Assembly (NCBI GenBank): GCA_029261355.1
Contig: JAJDBM010000070.1
Location: 62,001 to 126,000, forward strand
Source of the DNA: Nitrospirales bacterium
GTDB lineage: Bacteria > Nitrospirota > Nitrospiria > Nitrospirales > UBA8639
Length of the DNA: 64,000 nucleotides
Reading direction: 5' to 3'
Positions within the stretch are counted from its first letter, which is position 1. The number at the start of each line of letters is the position of its first letter. Below the pieces are notes generated by a model. It saw only the letters and a program-made list of their open reading frames with translations, was not told the DNA's origin and made no database searches. This document shows positions 43,371 to 57,118 of this stretch, piece after piece. The position numbers were made by a program, and so were the translations under genes.

Positions 43371-43475
43371 CAAGCGCAACCTGATGGAAGAAGATATGCC
43401 TGGGTCTGTGGTAAGCTTTTGACATTCTTGATCAAGAATGAAAGGAATATTTTCCATTACAACTATTTTTAAATT

Positions 43476-52788: not shown

Positions 52789-53997
52789 TTACCAATTGAG
52801 AGATTTTCCAATTTCGGTCACGTTGTATCCACCGATGGCTTGCAGCTCTTGCCGAAAGGGCCGACTCACCATGACATCAAAGAGTCGAGAAATCATCGGG
52901 TGTGAGTCGAGGACATCGTTTCGTAAAATAAGATCATAATGCTCTTCACGCAAAGGTAGGAATGCTAAGCCGTACTGACGAGCTGCAGCTTCGACGCCGA
53001 TTCCCACATCTGCCATGCCATCCCGAACGAGCCGGGCCACTTCCAAATGTGACGCGACTTCATGGTCATACCCCTTTACCTGCTGACCTGTGATGCCTGA
53101 TGCATGAAGCAGTTTATCGAGTAGTTGCCTGGACCCTGACCCAGGTTCTCTATTGATCAGTTGAATGCCTCGTTTGAGGAAATCCTCAACCGTACGGATA
53201 TGTTTCGGATTACCTGGACGTACTAATAGGCCCTGGACCCATGAGGCGAAACGCACCCCTCGAAAGTCTTTTCCCCGAACATGTTGTTTTAAATAAGGGA
53301 TATTACTTTCTCCTGATTTGGTATCCACTAAATGTACGCCAGCCATATGCACTTCACCATGGAGCAGTGCCTTCACCGCATTGGTGCTGCCCATCGTCCA
53401 GTTTGTCACTCCAGCTATGGCATGGTGAGAACGTACATGTTCTCCGGCCAAAAATAAAGAAGGATCGCAGCCAGCAATCATAATGTGATGTGTGATTTTT
53501 TCACGATTATGAAGTAGGCTGACCTGTACGCGCGGGGATTTTCGACTTTGCTTTTTAGGAATGGCTCCGGTCACGATTCCGTCGGCAGGCATGACAAAAT
53601 TTAGCATATCACCCAATTGTGATACGGGCCTGGCAATCATGCGGTTACCTATCTGAGATAGCTTGACGCGTAAGGGACGTCCATCAAGCGTTGATGGCCC
53701 CAATAACTCAGCCTCAACTTGTTCACCATTTGATGGAAGAGAAAAAAGATCTTCGACGGAACATCCTAAGACTCGAGCCAATTGTAAGGCCAGTGAAGTA
53801 TTGGGGAGATATTGGTTGTGTTCAATTGCATGCATAGCCTGTCGAGTCAAACCAACTAGATTGGCTACCTCAACTTGAGCCATGCCTTTGGATTTTCGCA
53901 TGGCCAGCACCGTATTCTTAATGGCTTGCTCCGAACTCAGAGCAGGTCCAGTCTTTCCTATTCTGGCCCCTGTTTGTACTTTTTTCATGTTTCCCAT
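52789..53997 (-). CDS. HTH regulator with a molybdate-binding-protein-like (COG1910-type) domain
   Basis: A regulator of 402 residues from the ATG at 53997; an ATG at 53988 is also possible. An XRE-type helix-turn-helix lies at about 25-80 (MRKSKGMAQVEVANLVGLT, RQAMHAIEHNQYLPN). A small middle domain (about 85-150) follows. The C-terminal half is a periplasmic-binding-protein-like fold: IMIAGCDPSLFLAGEH, WTMGSTNAVKALLHGEVHMA and NREPGSGSRQLLDKLL. It ends with the GMADVGIGVEAAA segment typical of the molybdate-binding-like regulators that replace ModE in many bacteria. It is convergent with modC, so it probably senses molybdate and controls the porin/mod promoter. Confidence 0.87.
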   Translation of the reverse strand: MGNMKKVQTGARIGKTGPALSSEQAIKNTVLAMRKSKGMAQVEVANLVGLTRQAMHAIEHNQYLPNTSLALQLARVLGCSVEDLFSLPSNGEQVEAELLGPSTLDGRPLRVKLSQIGNRMIARPVSQLGDMLNFVMPADGIVTGAIPKKQSRKSPRVQVSLLHNREKITHHIMIAGCDPSLFLAGEHVRSHHAIAGVTNWTMGSTNAVKALLHGEVHMAGVHLVDTKSGESNIPYLKQHVRGKDFRGVRFASWVQGLLVRPGNPKHIRTVEDFLKRGIQLINREPGSGSRQLLDKLLHASGITGQQVKGYDHEVASHLEVARLVRDGMADVGIGVEAAARQYGLAFLPLREEHYDLILRNDVLDSHPMISRLFDVMVSRPFRQELQAIGGYNVTEIGKSLNW

Positions 53998-54090
53998 GCT
54001 ACCCAACGTTCAGGCGAAAGTACAGGCAGGGTAAGATATAAAAACCCTTTTCCTGGAACCTGTGCTGACAAGTATTTACGAACCAATGGA

Positions 54091-54487: not shown

Positions 54488-54715
54488 TTACTGGGTACGG
54501 ACCTCCCCAATGTCTTCAATTTCAAATTCTATTGTTTTTAGTTCGCTCGGGAGCTTCTGTCGTATGTCTCTTGCTGGCACAGAGGTATATATTTTAAGAC
54601 ATGGATTTCCACTTTGACACAGCCCAATCCCGACTCCTGTGATACCTTCAATTGAGAGTAGTAATGGTTCGAACTTGTTACGGATACTTTCGATTGATTG
54701 TGGTGTAGGTTCCAT
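54488..54715 (-). CDS. small protein like the N-terminal domain of the NAL1-like protease
   Basis: A 75-residue protein with a strong start: AGGAG nine bases ahead of the ATG at 54715. Upstream in-frame sequence is hydrophobic and not well supported. Its core LSIEGITGVGIGLCQSGNP followed by CLKIYTS and a closing EFEIEDIGEVRTQ parallels residues 26-90 of the protease at 56098: LSNVQGVGIGYKEVG, ELCIKVYVE and DVQEVGRIEA. It thus looks like a stand-alone copy of the protease N-terminal domain. Such a domain could act as an inhibitor, chaperone or adaptor; this is inference. Confidence 0.65.
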   Translation of the reverse strand: MEPTPQSIESIRNKFEPLLLSIEGITGVGIGLCQSGNPCLKIYTSVPARDIRQKLPSELKTIEFEIEDIGEVRTQ

Positions 54716-55122
54716 ATGAGAGACTCCTTGTTGTGGTTCATTTGGAAAACTTATGAAAGATATGATGCAAAACACTACGCTAGGTATCGTCATTTCTGAA
54801 ATAACCTTATGTGAAGAATGTCACATTAAACGTCTATTCTAGGCTCGATCATTCCTGTTGAATTGTATCTTATATATTGCAGACAATCCCAATTATCGAT
54901 ATTGTGAAATGTTGAGCTTGGTTATCTGATTGAAATTAGTCATTCTCTTGTTTATTTCATAATAACTGCATGCTTATGGAGAAGTAATGTCTTTCATCTA
55001 ATTGCCTTGGACCGTTTTTTTATAACTATTAACAAAAGGGGGTAAGAGATATCTGCAAAGTGACTGAGTCAGGGAGATAAAGCTGGGGTATGGAGATACC
55101 CCAGCTTTGCCTTTTTCAGAAT
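54716..55122. other. intergenic region with a terminator-like hairpin
   Basis: 407 bases between two genes of the protease island. The right end carries the 13-bp inverted repeat at 55079-55108. The remaining AT-rich part should hold the promoter for the small gene at 54715, but no box is clear. Confidence 0.45.
55079..55108 (-). terminator. 13-bp perfect inverted repeat after the beta-domain gene
   Basis: AAAGCTGGGGTAT (55079-55091) pairs perfectly with ATACCCCAGCTTT (55096-55108) around GGAG. It lies 14 bases past the stop of the minus-strand gene at 55123. The U-tract is weak on the minus side (TTTATCTCC) and better on the plus side. Confidence 0.7.
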
Positions 55123-56046
55123 TTATGAAAAATCAAAACGCACCCATGGCACAAAGATATAATCACTACCTCTAAAACTGAGTGTGGCAATTGATCCACT
55201 TCCTTCAGTTTCGACTCGGGTTCTGACTTCTACCTCACAAATCACCCATTTGTTGGCTCCGACGGGTAGAGATCCTGAGTAGAGGGTTCGATTCAGGTCA
55301 ATACGACCACTGCGGTTAATATTATCATCTGATAATCGAAACACGTTATCCTTGACATTTCCACCCCAATAGTTTTGGTGAAGGCGAACATTCACATCTA
55401 AGTCGACGCATGCTTCCTTCGATGTAAAGAATCCGTCGTTGGCACGAACACGATACCAGCCTCGAGTGAAATAGGGGACATAGGCTCTCACGTGTCCATT
55501 TTGCCGTGGCCAAAATGCAAAGAATAATTTAGTCCAAGTGGTGACGTCATTGTCATCCGATATGCCCGTGCCATCTCCACGAGCATGCGCATACGGACGC
55601 ATGCGACGAGCTGCGAGACTGACGGAGGCATTGCCTGTTGTCACTCCTCCCTCATTGTGAGTATGCACTCTCCACCATCCATGATAGGGGTTGGAGTCGT
55701 AGTATCGACCAGGTCCAGTGCCTGTGACCGTTTGGATTTCCAGGTTCTGTTCAATGGTGAGTTGCTGCATGATTTCTGTGTCATCTATTTCAGCTGAAGA
55801 GGGCGCATAGGTTTCTTCGTCTTCTACCGCCATTTGAGCGGCATGTTCTGACTGCTGTTTTCCTTCAACCTCAAATGCGTCAGTACGAAGTTTGGCTGCA
55901 GCTGCTACTTCACGCATTTCAGCCTCATGTTTCTTTCGATCCTCTCGGCTATTGGCTATCGATGATTCGAGCTCAGCATATTCTTGTTCTGGTTTCTTTT
56001 CTGCTTCCTGGTCTAACCATTCAATTTGTGGCAATGATTCTTTCAT
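55123..56046 (-). CDS. unknown protein: N-terminal coiled coil plus C-terminal beta-rich domain
   Basis: A 307-residue protein that I do not recognise. Residues 1-75 are highly charged and helical (EYAELESSIANSREDRKKHE, AAAAKLRTDAFEVEG), probably a coiled coil. Residues about 115-307 look like a beta-sandwich rich in aromatic and Arg residues: GWWRVHTHNEGG, TKLFFAFWPRQNGHVRAYV, RGWYRVRANDGFF, WVICEVEVRTRVETEG and SDYIFVPWVRFDF. There is no signal peptide. It lies 51 bases after the NAL1-like protease gene on the same strand, so the two are probably co-expressed. A role as substrate or target-binding partner is inferred from position only. Confidence 0.7.
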   Translation of the reverse strand: MKESLPQIEWLDQEAEKKPEQEYAELESSIANSREDRKKHEAEMREVAAAAKLRTDAFEVEGKQQSEHAAQMAVEDEETYAPSSAEIDDTEIMQQLTIEQNLEIQTVTGTGPGRYYDSNPYHGWWRVHTHNEGGVTTGNASVSLAARRMRPYAHARGDGTGISDDNDVTTWTKLFFAFWPRQNGHVRAYVPYFTRGWYRVRANDGFFTSKEACVDLDVNVRLHQNYWGGNVKDNVFRLSDDNINRSGRIDLNRTLYSGSLPVGANKWVICEVEVRTRVETEGSGSIATLSFRGSDYIFVPWVRFDFS

Positions 56047-56097
56047 GAGTGGATATCTCCTTATTTTAAAAATGAATTAATGCGCATCGATTAAGGC

Positions 56098-57027
56098 TTA
56101 AGCGGTGATGAGTTCAACGCCTAGTGCCATGAGGACGTTGGCAATATTGTTATGAATCGTCACCTGACTCGACCCAGCAAATAACAGCCCCGTCGCTTTT
56201 CGATCAGCACGACTCATGAGCAGAGACCCTGAGTCGCCTCCTTGTGACATGTTGGTCGTCAGGATTTGATTCCTGAAGTATCCAACTCCCACGCCGTAGT
56301 TCACGGCAACGGTGACGTCAATGCCAGTCACTCGACCGGTGGTCGTTTCAGTTGTTCGTCCACTTTTAACTACATTGAGTCCCAAGGTCGCCTCGACGCT
56401 ACCCCGTGGAATTCCTAACGCCACCACAGAACTCATCACATCTCGTTGATTTGTCGGTCGAGCGAGTGCCGCATCGACCAAGTTGTAGCGTGATGGGTTA
56501 TTGAAGCGAATGGGAATAAATCGAGAGAGACGACCGATAAGGTCTCGTGGAAAGAGTCCACCGTCTACTCGTCCTGGTTGAAGGATCGGATGTCCTATTG
56601 CTGCTGAATTCGAGTTGGCCAGCACATGGTTATTGCTTAAAATATGCACTCGACATGGTGGACAAACGTCTCTGACTAAACATCCAAACGTTCCCGCCGT
56701 GATTTGAAAATGCCCGATACTAAATCCCGGCTTTGTGGGGCGAACTTTTGATGTAAACGCAAGAGCTTCAATGCGTCCCACTTCCTGTACATCGGTTTTA
56801 ATGCCACCCATGGTGGCTGCCACCATGTCTTCTGAAGATAGGTTCTTTTTTGGTTGTTTCTTTTCGACATAAACCTTGATGCACAATTCAGTTGATTCCT
56901 TACTGCCAACCTCTTTGTACCCAATGCCTACACCTTGAACATTCGATAATGAAAAGAGCTTTTCTTCGTGCTCTCCTTTGACTTCCTGAATCTTTGCTAA
57001 CTGGATGTCTATTTCTTCTCCCGACAT
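56098..57027 (-). CDS. NAL1-like trypsin-fold serine protease
   Basis: A 309-residue protein without a signal peptide. A small N-terminal domain (about 1-90, containing SNVQGVGIGYKEVG) precedes a trypsin-like fold. The likely catalytic triad is His134 in ILSNNHVLANS, Asp185 in YNLVDAALARP and Ser266 in SQGGDSGSLLMS. Three cysteines (116, 122, 125) lie just before the His. This layout matches the NAL1-like proteases found in bacteria and plants, whose bacterial roles are unknown. The start is secure: GGAGGTGA lies at ideal spacing. It is the first of the three-gene minus-strand island and is preceded by a long control region with a perfect palindrome. Confidence 0.82.
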   Translation of the reverse strand: MSGEEIDIQLAKIQEVKGEHEEKLFSLSNVQGVGIGYKEVGSKESTELCIKVYVEKKQPKKNLSSEDMVAATMGGIKTDVQEVGRIEALAFTSKVRPTKPGFSIGHFQITAGTFGCLVRDVCPPCRVHILSNNHVLANSNSAAIGHPILQPGRVDGGLFPRDLIGRLSRFIPIRFNNPSRYNLVDAALARPTNQRDVMSSVVALGIPRGSVEATLGLNVVKSGRTTETTTGRVTGIDVTVAVNYGVGVGYFRNQILTTNMSQGGDSGSLLMSRADRKATGLLFAGSSQVTIHNNIANVLMALGVELITA

Positions 57028-57100
57028 AATTCACCTCCATGTCAAATCATGATGAATAAAATAAATATAAAAACCTCGGATAAGAATGACCGGTTGTCTC

Positions 57101-57118
57101 ATGCACAATATTGTGCAT
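57101..57118. promoter_or_regulatory. 18-bp perfect palindrome upstream of the NAL1-like protease gene
   Basis: ATGCACAATATTGTGCAT is its own reverse complement. It lies 74-91 bases ahead of the protease start, overlapping a possible -35 box on the minus strand. A dimeric repressor or activator site is the natural reading. Confidence 0.6.

What the first reader, a model, noticed from the sequence alone, without database searches (positions are those of the whole stretch)
54488..57118. Three-gene island around a NAL1-like protease, with a duplicated N-terminal domain and a palindromic operator
A cytoplasmic NAL1-like serine protease with full triad (His134, Asp185, Ser266) is followed 51 bases on by an unknown coiled-coil/beta-domain protein, and then by a 75-residue protein that copies the protease N-terminal domain without the protease. 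A perfect 18-bp palindrome lies ahead. A protease, a free copy of its own prodomain-like part and a possible target-binding protein resemble a regulated protease module or a stress or conflict system. Motifs and layout are seen; the function is inference. This is my best candidate for an undescribed system.
Basis: partly seen in the sequence, partly recalled or inferred. Interest (0 to 1): 0.68.

Follow-up and report, generated by a model that had tools for sequence, protein, structure and literature searches.

The report
Protease paired with free prodomain-like partner
Many bacteria carry a protein-cutting enzyme related to a plant leaf-shape protease next to a small separate protein built like the enzyme's own front part, probably its brake; viruses carry the same enzyme without the small protein, and the pair seems not to have been described before.

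Summary
On the minus strand lie a NAL1-like serine protease (57027-56098, triad His134/Asp185/Ser266), a coiled-coil plus beta-sandwich protein (56046-55123) and a 75-aa stand-alone homologue of the protease N-domain (54715-54488). It is more than a local curiosity. Of the 80 nearest protease loci in other genomes, 67 carry the free domain beside the protease (one as a fusion). In 147 Nitrospirota genomes all five stand-alone copies sit beside a protease. Eleven other genomes keep the exact three-gene order. The free domain is an old separate lineage, not a recent copy, and it ends where the N-domain joins the catalytic domain. Of 50 virus records with the same protease, none has a free domain. 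Best reading: a protease with a dedicated propeptide-like trans-acting regulator, most likely an inhibitor; the middle protein is probably a targeting or scaffolding factor. Inhibition is inferred, not shown. About 11 of 70 free domains carry export signals while their protease does not, so an effector-immunity reading stays open. The palindrome is real but single-copy and not conserved. I found no family model or paper describing the pair. New variant of a known kind.

The parts
56098..57027 (-). NAL1-like trypsin-fold serine protease, 309 aa (P0001); His134, Asp185, Ser266
   Evidence: ORF and translation; family profile matches solved NAL1 chains, E 7e-16; triad invariant in 88/88
56737..57015 (-). 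N-domain of the protease (about residues 5-97), homologous to the free 75-aa protein
   Evidence: hhalign 98.7-98.8%, E about 1e-16; PF25608 NAL1_N in 52/60 family members
55123..56046 (-). Middle protein, 307 aa (P0002): helical N-half (4-101) and beta-sandwich (105-307)
   Evidence: ORF; 15 homologues, each directly 3' of a protease; AlphaFold2 model mean pLDDT 77; sandwich fold
54488..54715 (-). Free N-domain homologue, 75 aa (P0003), C-terminal tail IGEVRTQ
   Evidence: ORF; co-occurrence; model mean pLDDT 84 with loose tail; tail statistics
55078..55109 (.). Hairpin in the spacer between middle gene and free-domain gene; possible terminator, attenuator or processing site
   Evidence: 13-bp perfect stem; z -4.4; T-tract lies on the plus-strand side; similar spacer hairpins in several relatives
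57101..57118 (.). Perfect 18-bp palindrome 74 bp before the protease start; not shown to be functional

Best explanation
This is a horizontally acquired copy of a widespread bacterial module: a NAL1-like serine protease whose N-terminal domain acts like a propeptide or regulatory domain, plus a separately encoded homologue of that domain that regulates the protease in trans, most likely as an inhibitor. Proposed mechanism: the free domain docks on the catalytic domain as the N-domain does, and its short flexible C-terminal tail (consensus G-x-I-x-A-Q at the end of the protein) enters the active-site cleft like the new C-terminus of a cleaved propeptide, holding the protease off until it is displaced or degraded. 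In one sub-branch, including this window, a third protein (coiled coil plus beta-sandwich) is encoded directly after the protease and probably targets it, scaffolds it or presents substrate. Shown by computation: homology, co-occurrence, gene order, old separate ancestry of the free domain, position of its C-terminus, absence from the virus records. Inferred: binding, inhibition, tail insertion, any role of the middle protein.
For: Co-occurrence: 67 of 80 protease loci carry the free domain beside the protease or fused to it, many with a 4-bp start/stop overlap. In 147 Nitrospirota genomes all 5 stand-alone domains lie within 1.4 kb of a protease. In 301 Chloroflexota genomes every genome with a strong stand-alone match also has the protease N-domain, including three where the two are unlinked. 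Homology of free domain and N-domain. Free and N-domains form separate old lineages (5 label changes, 45 expected when shuffled; no own-pair sisters), and partner distances correlate (r 0.63, 0 of 2000 permutations). The free protein ends within 2 residues of the domain boundary in 49/58 cases, after an Ala also present in 64/67 protease N-domains. Viruses: 0 of 50 records with the protease encode a free domain; at matched identity 52/59 cellular against 0/27 viral loci, as expected if cells need a brake. Precedents: stand-alone propeptide-like inhibitors such as SUB1-ProM, encoded beside subtilisin genes (PMC6993865), and an intracellular protease with its inhibitor in one operon, protealysin-emfourin (PMC9505478).
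Against: No interaction or inhibition was tested; no complex could be modelled and no coordinates were available. About 11 of 70 free domains carry a signal peptide or lipobox while their protease has none, so the two may sit in different compartments there. The tail residue does not clearly covary with the candidate S1-pocket residue 292. The fold match to the alpha-lytic protease pro region is at background level (Z 5.4) and there is no sequence match to it. In the window the free gene is 407 bp beyond the middle gene, past a strong hairpin. 13 of 80 loci have no adjacent free domain (2 of those contigs end early).
Confidence: 0.55

Rival explanations
1. Effector and immunity pair: the protease is delivered to or acts on other cells, and the free domain is the immunity protein that protects the producer; the middle protein would help delivery or target binding.
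For: In about 11 of 70 pairs the free domain has a signal peptide or lipobox while the protease has none. The middle protein has a helical stalk and an adhesin-like or carbohydrate-module-like sandwich. The island sits at a variable site that holds an AbiEii-like gene in a same-genus genome. The protealysin-emfourin authors propose the same reading for their pair (PMC9505478).
Against: No secretion-system gene or known delivery domain is conserved in the flanks; most free domains have no export signal; no PADLOC match.
Confidence: 0.15
2. The free domain is a structural or adaptor subunit: it forms mixed oligomers with the protease or brings substrates, activating rather than inhibiting it.
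For: N-domain homology would allow mixed assembly; NAL1 chains are solved with up to 6 copies per entry; close gene linkage and correlated distances.
Against: Does not explain why the free protein ends at the catalytic-domain junction with a conserved A-Q tail, nor why viruses never carry it.
Confidence: 0.15
3. The free domain is a folding helper (chaperone in trans) for the protease, as propeptides often are, without lasting inhibition.
For: Propeptides of related trypsin-fold enzymes help folding (established for alpha-lytic protease, own knowledge); N-domain homology.
Against: The protease already has its own N-domain; viral proteases do without a free copy.
Confidence: 0.1
4. The free domain is a substrate or processed product of the protease (for example a signal or a modified peptide precursor).
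For: Conserved short tail; one plasmid locus lies in a cluster with radical SAM and peptide-modification genes.
Against: Domain-like fold with good confidence, no peptide-like core, and no modification genes conserved in the other loci.
Confidence: 0.05

Closest known systems
Rice NARROW LEAF 1 (NAL1) protease family (Pfam NAL1_N PF25608, Nal1_C PF25819)
   Same: Same two-domain layout by profile; N-domain and catalytic domain both align to solved NAL1 chains
   Different: The bacterial proteins are shorter and come with a separately encoded N-domain homologue; no such partner was seen in the plant literature I could search
Stand-alone propeptide-like inhibitors (MEROPS I9 stand-alone members; SUB1-ProM, PMC6993865)
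   Same: Small separate protein resembling the propeptide, syntenic with its protease, short C-tail directed to the active site
   Different: Those act on subtilisins (S8) and are reported as possible convergent mimics; here the protease has a trypsin/NAL1 fold and the free domain is a detectable sequence homologue of the protease N-domain; no I9 profile match
Protealysin-emfourin operon (PMC9505478)
   Same: Intracellular bacterial protease with its inhibitor encoded in one operon
   Different: Metalloprotease with an inhibitor of another family
Alpha-lytic protease pro region (2pro, 3pro, 4pro)
   Same: The catalytic-domain profile matches streptogrisin and alpha-lytic protease structures; the pro region is among the top fold matches of the free domain (Z 5.4)
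   Different: No sequence similarity; the fold match is tied with unrelated KH-like proteins

Membership tests
NAL1-like serine proteases | His-Asp-Ser triad in a trypsin-like domain | tested here: met
   88/88 family members; profile match to NAL1 and trypsin-fold structures
NAL1-like serine proteases | NAL1_N-type N-terminal domain | tested here: met
   PF25608 in 52/60 family members; family profile aligns to the NAL1 N-domain. P0001 alone only E 0.088
NAL1-like serine proteases | Nal1_C match above the curated cut-off | tested here: inconclusive
   P0001 25.1 bits against cut-off 26.1; 26/60 members match at E <= 0.01
NAL1-like serine proteases | Proteolytic activity and oligomeric state | not testable with these tools
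   needs protein
Stand-alone propeptide-type protease inhibitors | Separate gene, homologous to the N-terminal region of the cognate protease and linked to it | tested here: met
Stand-alone propeptide-type protease inhibitors | Inhibits the cognate protease | not testable with these tools
   needs an assay
MEROPS I9 / Inhibitor_I9 | Sequence match to the I9 family | tested here: not met
   No such Pfam match for P0003 or the 58 family members
Alpha-lytic protease prodomain (PF02983) | Sequence profile match | tested here: not met
   hhalign probability at most 0.2% against a profile built from PF02983 loci
Alpha-lytic protease prodomain (PF02983) | Same fold | tested here: inconclusive
   Z 5.4/5.4/5.2 for 3pro/2pro/4pro, tied with unrelated folds near Z 5
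Known anti-phage defence systems (PADLOC-DB 2.0.0) | Match to a PADLOC model | tested here: not met
   None for the three proteins, none for 60 proteases
Protealysin-emfourin type operon | Metalloprotease of the protealysin type plus emfourin | tested here: not met
   The protease is a trypsin-fold serine protease

The most novel reading that the evidence does not exclude
A widespread, undescribed protease-and-antidote system: the NAL1-like protease acts on rival cells or on cell-surface targets with help from the coiled-coil/beta-sandwich protein, and the free N-domain, exported in some lineages, is the antidote; viruses use the same protease without the antidote because they need not spare the cell.
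Probability: 0.13. Interest if true: 0.83.

Novelty: new variant of a known kind. Interest (0 to 1): 0.68.

Why it matters
It gives a partner to a large set of bacterial proteases that are mostly unannotated, and a simple testable rule: a cell-borne NAL1-like protease near this one usually comes with its own free N-domain, while none of 50 virus records with the protease has one. If the free domain is an inhibitor, it is a homologous, genetically encoded handle on a protease family whose plant member (NAL1) controls leaf shape and yield, and it would show how the N-domain of NAL1 itself may work.

Tried and rejected
Palindrome as conserved operator: single copy in the genome, not found upstream in relatives. 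Free domain as a recent duplicate of its own protease: own-pair scores rank no better than unrelated pairs, no own-pair sisters in the tree. Descent from the alpha-lytic protease prodomain: no sequence support; fold match only at background level. Defence system by library match: none. Covariation of the tail residue with the S1 candidate residue 292: not clear, and my regular expression misread some tails, so I use the alignment-based count instead. Middle-protein homologues in viral contigs: none. Other conserved neighbours: none across the set; one homologous regulator-like gene lies upstream in 8 loci of the sub-branch only. Function of the middle protein from its fold hits (carbohydrate modules, Bd1399, Cry domain III): a common beta-sandwich fold, no evidence of function. 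NAL1 structures were not among the listed fold matches of the 75-aa model, which does not exclude them. Papers on bacterial NAL1 homologues or on the pair: none found in the open-licence library.

Full report
WHAT IS THERE. The window lies in a 4.63-Mb genome of the order Nitrospirales by its relatives: relative G045, of the same family, has its protease on a contig of the same length, with the same gene coordinates, as JAJDBS010000096 of a Nitrospirales MAG. On the minus strand are a 309-aa protease (57027-56098), a 307-aa protein (56046-55123) after 51 bp, and a 75-aa protein (54715-54488) after 407 bp. All three starts have good ribosome-binding sites. A longer start for the 75-aa protein (ATG at 54793) would add a hydrophobic stretch, but its ribosome-binding site is weaker (read).

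THE PROTEASE. Alone it matches Nal1_C just under the cut-off and Trypsin_2 weakly. A profile of 60 relatives matches the solved rice NAL1 chains over both the N-domain and the catalytic domain (7y77, E 7e-16), then streptogrisins and alpha-lytic protease over the catalytic domain. His134, Asp185 and Ser266 are invariant in 88 family members. It has no recognisable signal peptide (by hydropathy).

THE FREE DOMAIN. The 75-aa protein has no Pfam or NCBIfam match, and its family has no NCBIfam model. Fifteen of 58 family members match NAL1_N. The short subtype alone aligns to the protease N-domains at 98.7% probability, E 1.7e-16; the long subtype at 99.9%, E 1.8e-36. AlphaFold2 predicts a compact alpha-beta domain with a loose tail (mean pLDDT 84).

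CO-OCCURRENCE. I took the 80 protease loci nearest to the query profile in genome contigs, chosen by protease only. Of these, 66 have a stand-alone free domain beside the protease and one (L073) carries it fused to the C-terminus: 67/80. Carriers include Gammaproteobacteria, deltaproteobacterial lineages, Thermodesulfobacteria, Chloroflexota, Actinomycetes, Bacteroidota/Chlorobiota, Gemmatimonadota and Omnitrophota. Arrangements differ: 4-bp overlap downstream, upstream, or convergent on the opposite strand in Nocardioides-type loci, so the link has been kept or remade in several layouts. Two of the 13 loci without it (L031, L032) end at a contig edge. In L082 and L098 the genome encodes a free domain elsewhere. 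Whole-genome controls: in 147 Nitrospirota genomes five stand-alone domains exist, all beside a protease; in 301 Chloroflexota genomes all those with a strong stand-alone match also have the protease N-domain, with three unlinked cases.

THE MIDDLE PROTEIN. Fifteen homologues exist in the 80 loci, each directly 3' of the protease, all in the sub-branch closest to the window protease. The full order protease - middle - free domain is seen in L029, L030, L035-L041, L043 and L044, probably also L042. AlphaFold2 gives a helical N-part and a well-predicted beta-sandwich. Fold matches are carbohydrate-module-like sandwiches and the Bdellovibrio protein Bd1399 (Foldseek E 5e-7): a shared fold, not a function. 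It has no homologue in 146 other Nitrospirota genomes or in viral contigs.

ORIGIN OF THE WINDOW COPY. The four other genomes of the genus lack the protease, and the closest proteases are 64-66% identical, mostly in Gammaproteobacteria. In same-genus G001 the two flanking genes (regulator 52789-54006 and the large helicase from 58.2 kb) are neighbours, and the gap holds an AbiEii-like gene instead. So the three genes look like a horizontally acquired cassette at a variable site; the window's free domain groups with those of the other three-gene loci (support 0.93).

WHY A TRANS-ACTING REGULATOR. First, the free domains and protease N-domains are separate old lineages (5 changes of label on the tree, about 45 if shuffled, no own-pair sisters), and protease and partner distances correlate (r 0.63; shared species history contributes), so this is a dedicated partner, not debris from duplication. 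Second, the free protein ends where the N-domain meets the catalytic domain: a conserved Ala (49/58), then mostly Gln (30/58; 17 of 33 representatives below 50% identity), and the chain ends within 2 residues in 49/58. The protease N-domains have the same Ala in 64/67, followed by Leu, Gln or Gly, and then continue. A cleaved propeptide would end the same way. Third, viruses: 58 IMG/VR loci encode the protease, among real phage genes (terminase, portal, tail, endolysin). None has a free domain nearby, and a record-wide search of 50 records finds only the protease's own N-domain (in a broken frame in two). At matched identity this is 52/59 cellular against 0/27 viral loci. The p-value ignores relatedness, and virus records can be fragments, but the contrast is stark. 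It fits a brake needed by a cell that must survive its own protease.

WHAT SPEAKS AGAINST. No binding or inhibition has been tested. In about 11 of 70 pairs the free domain has a signal peptide or lipobox while the protease has none (by simple hydropathy and lipobox rules), which is awkward for inhibition in one compartment and would suit an immunity protein. The window's free gene is separated by a strong hairpin; similar hairpins in that spacer recur in relatives (z -2 to -4 in L029, L030, L037, L039, L041; not in L038). They may set the ratio of protease to partner, but the T-tract orientation in the window does not settle whether this one terminates the minus-strand transcript.

COMPARISON WITH THE KNOWN. 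It works most like the stand-alone propeptide inhibitors of subtilisins (PMC6993865) and like the protealysin-emfourin operon in layout (PMC9505478). It is a member of neither: no I9 match, a different kind of protease and an unrelated partner. The protease is a bacterial member of the NAL1-like group by profile. I found no description of the pair in the open-licence library; subscription journals are not covered, so novelty is likely but not proven.

VERDICT. A real, conserved and apparently undescribed protease-partner module, with a three-gene form in the window.

Noticed in passing
L201 (G001:C2:2946500-2950500), 1999-2550 minus: At the same site in a same-genus genome an AbiEii-like nucleotidyltransferase gene (E 1e-3, under cut-off) with a small overlapping gene replaces the protease module: a variable accessory site.
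   Followed up: partly
L117 (G002:C4:38125-38337): In a same-genus genome a NAL1_N-like domain is fused to a long protein with a metallopeptidase-like motif (QETGHMWG, by eye), not to a serine protease.
   Followed up: no
L073:6995-8311: Natural fusion: one 438-aa protein with N-domain, protease and a second N-domain copy at its C-terminus (Anaerolinea MAG).
   Followed up: partly
L181 (Rhizobium lusitanum plasmid p_2), 1289-4870: Protease plus divergent free-domain gene next to a radical SAM protein and a HEXXH putative peptide-modification protein: possible use in a peptide-maturation cluster.
   Followed up: partly
L182:2887-4767 (Streptomyces canus plasmid); also Tsukamurella and Rhizobium plasmid hits: NAL1-like protease fused to a DNA/RNA non-specific endonuclease.
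   Followed up: no
L184:2953-3933 (Aeropyrum coil-shaped virus gene 25-326): An archaeal virus encodes a NAL1-like protease with the N-domain; no free domain in the 3 kb on either side.
   Followed up: partly
L030, L031, L033, L041-L044, L065, upstream of the protease: A homologous large gene, by eye a MalT-like regulator with an NTPase domain, lies upstream in 8 loci of the sub-branch; not in the window.
   Followed up: no
L108:3964-4605: A 213-aa protein with a charged start and a beta-rich-looking end sits between protease and free domain, like the middle protein here, but is not detectably homologous to it.
   Followed up: partly
L026 (G095:C2:613500-627500): Three tandem NAL1-like proteases without any free domain in a Nitrospirota genome.
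   Followed up: no
L022 (G090:C1:2384500-2395000): Protease plus free domain sit beside a thermolysin-like metalloprotease and a V8-like protease (assigned by eye): a local protease cluster.
   Followed up: no
window 43423-43440: Another perfect 18-bp palindrome, CATTCTTGATCAAGAATG.
   Followed up: no
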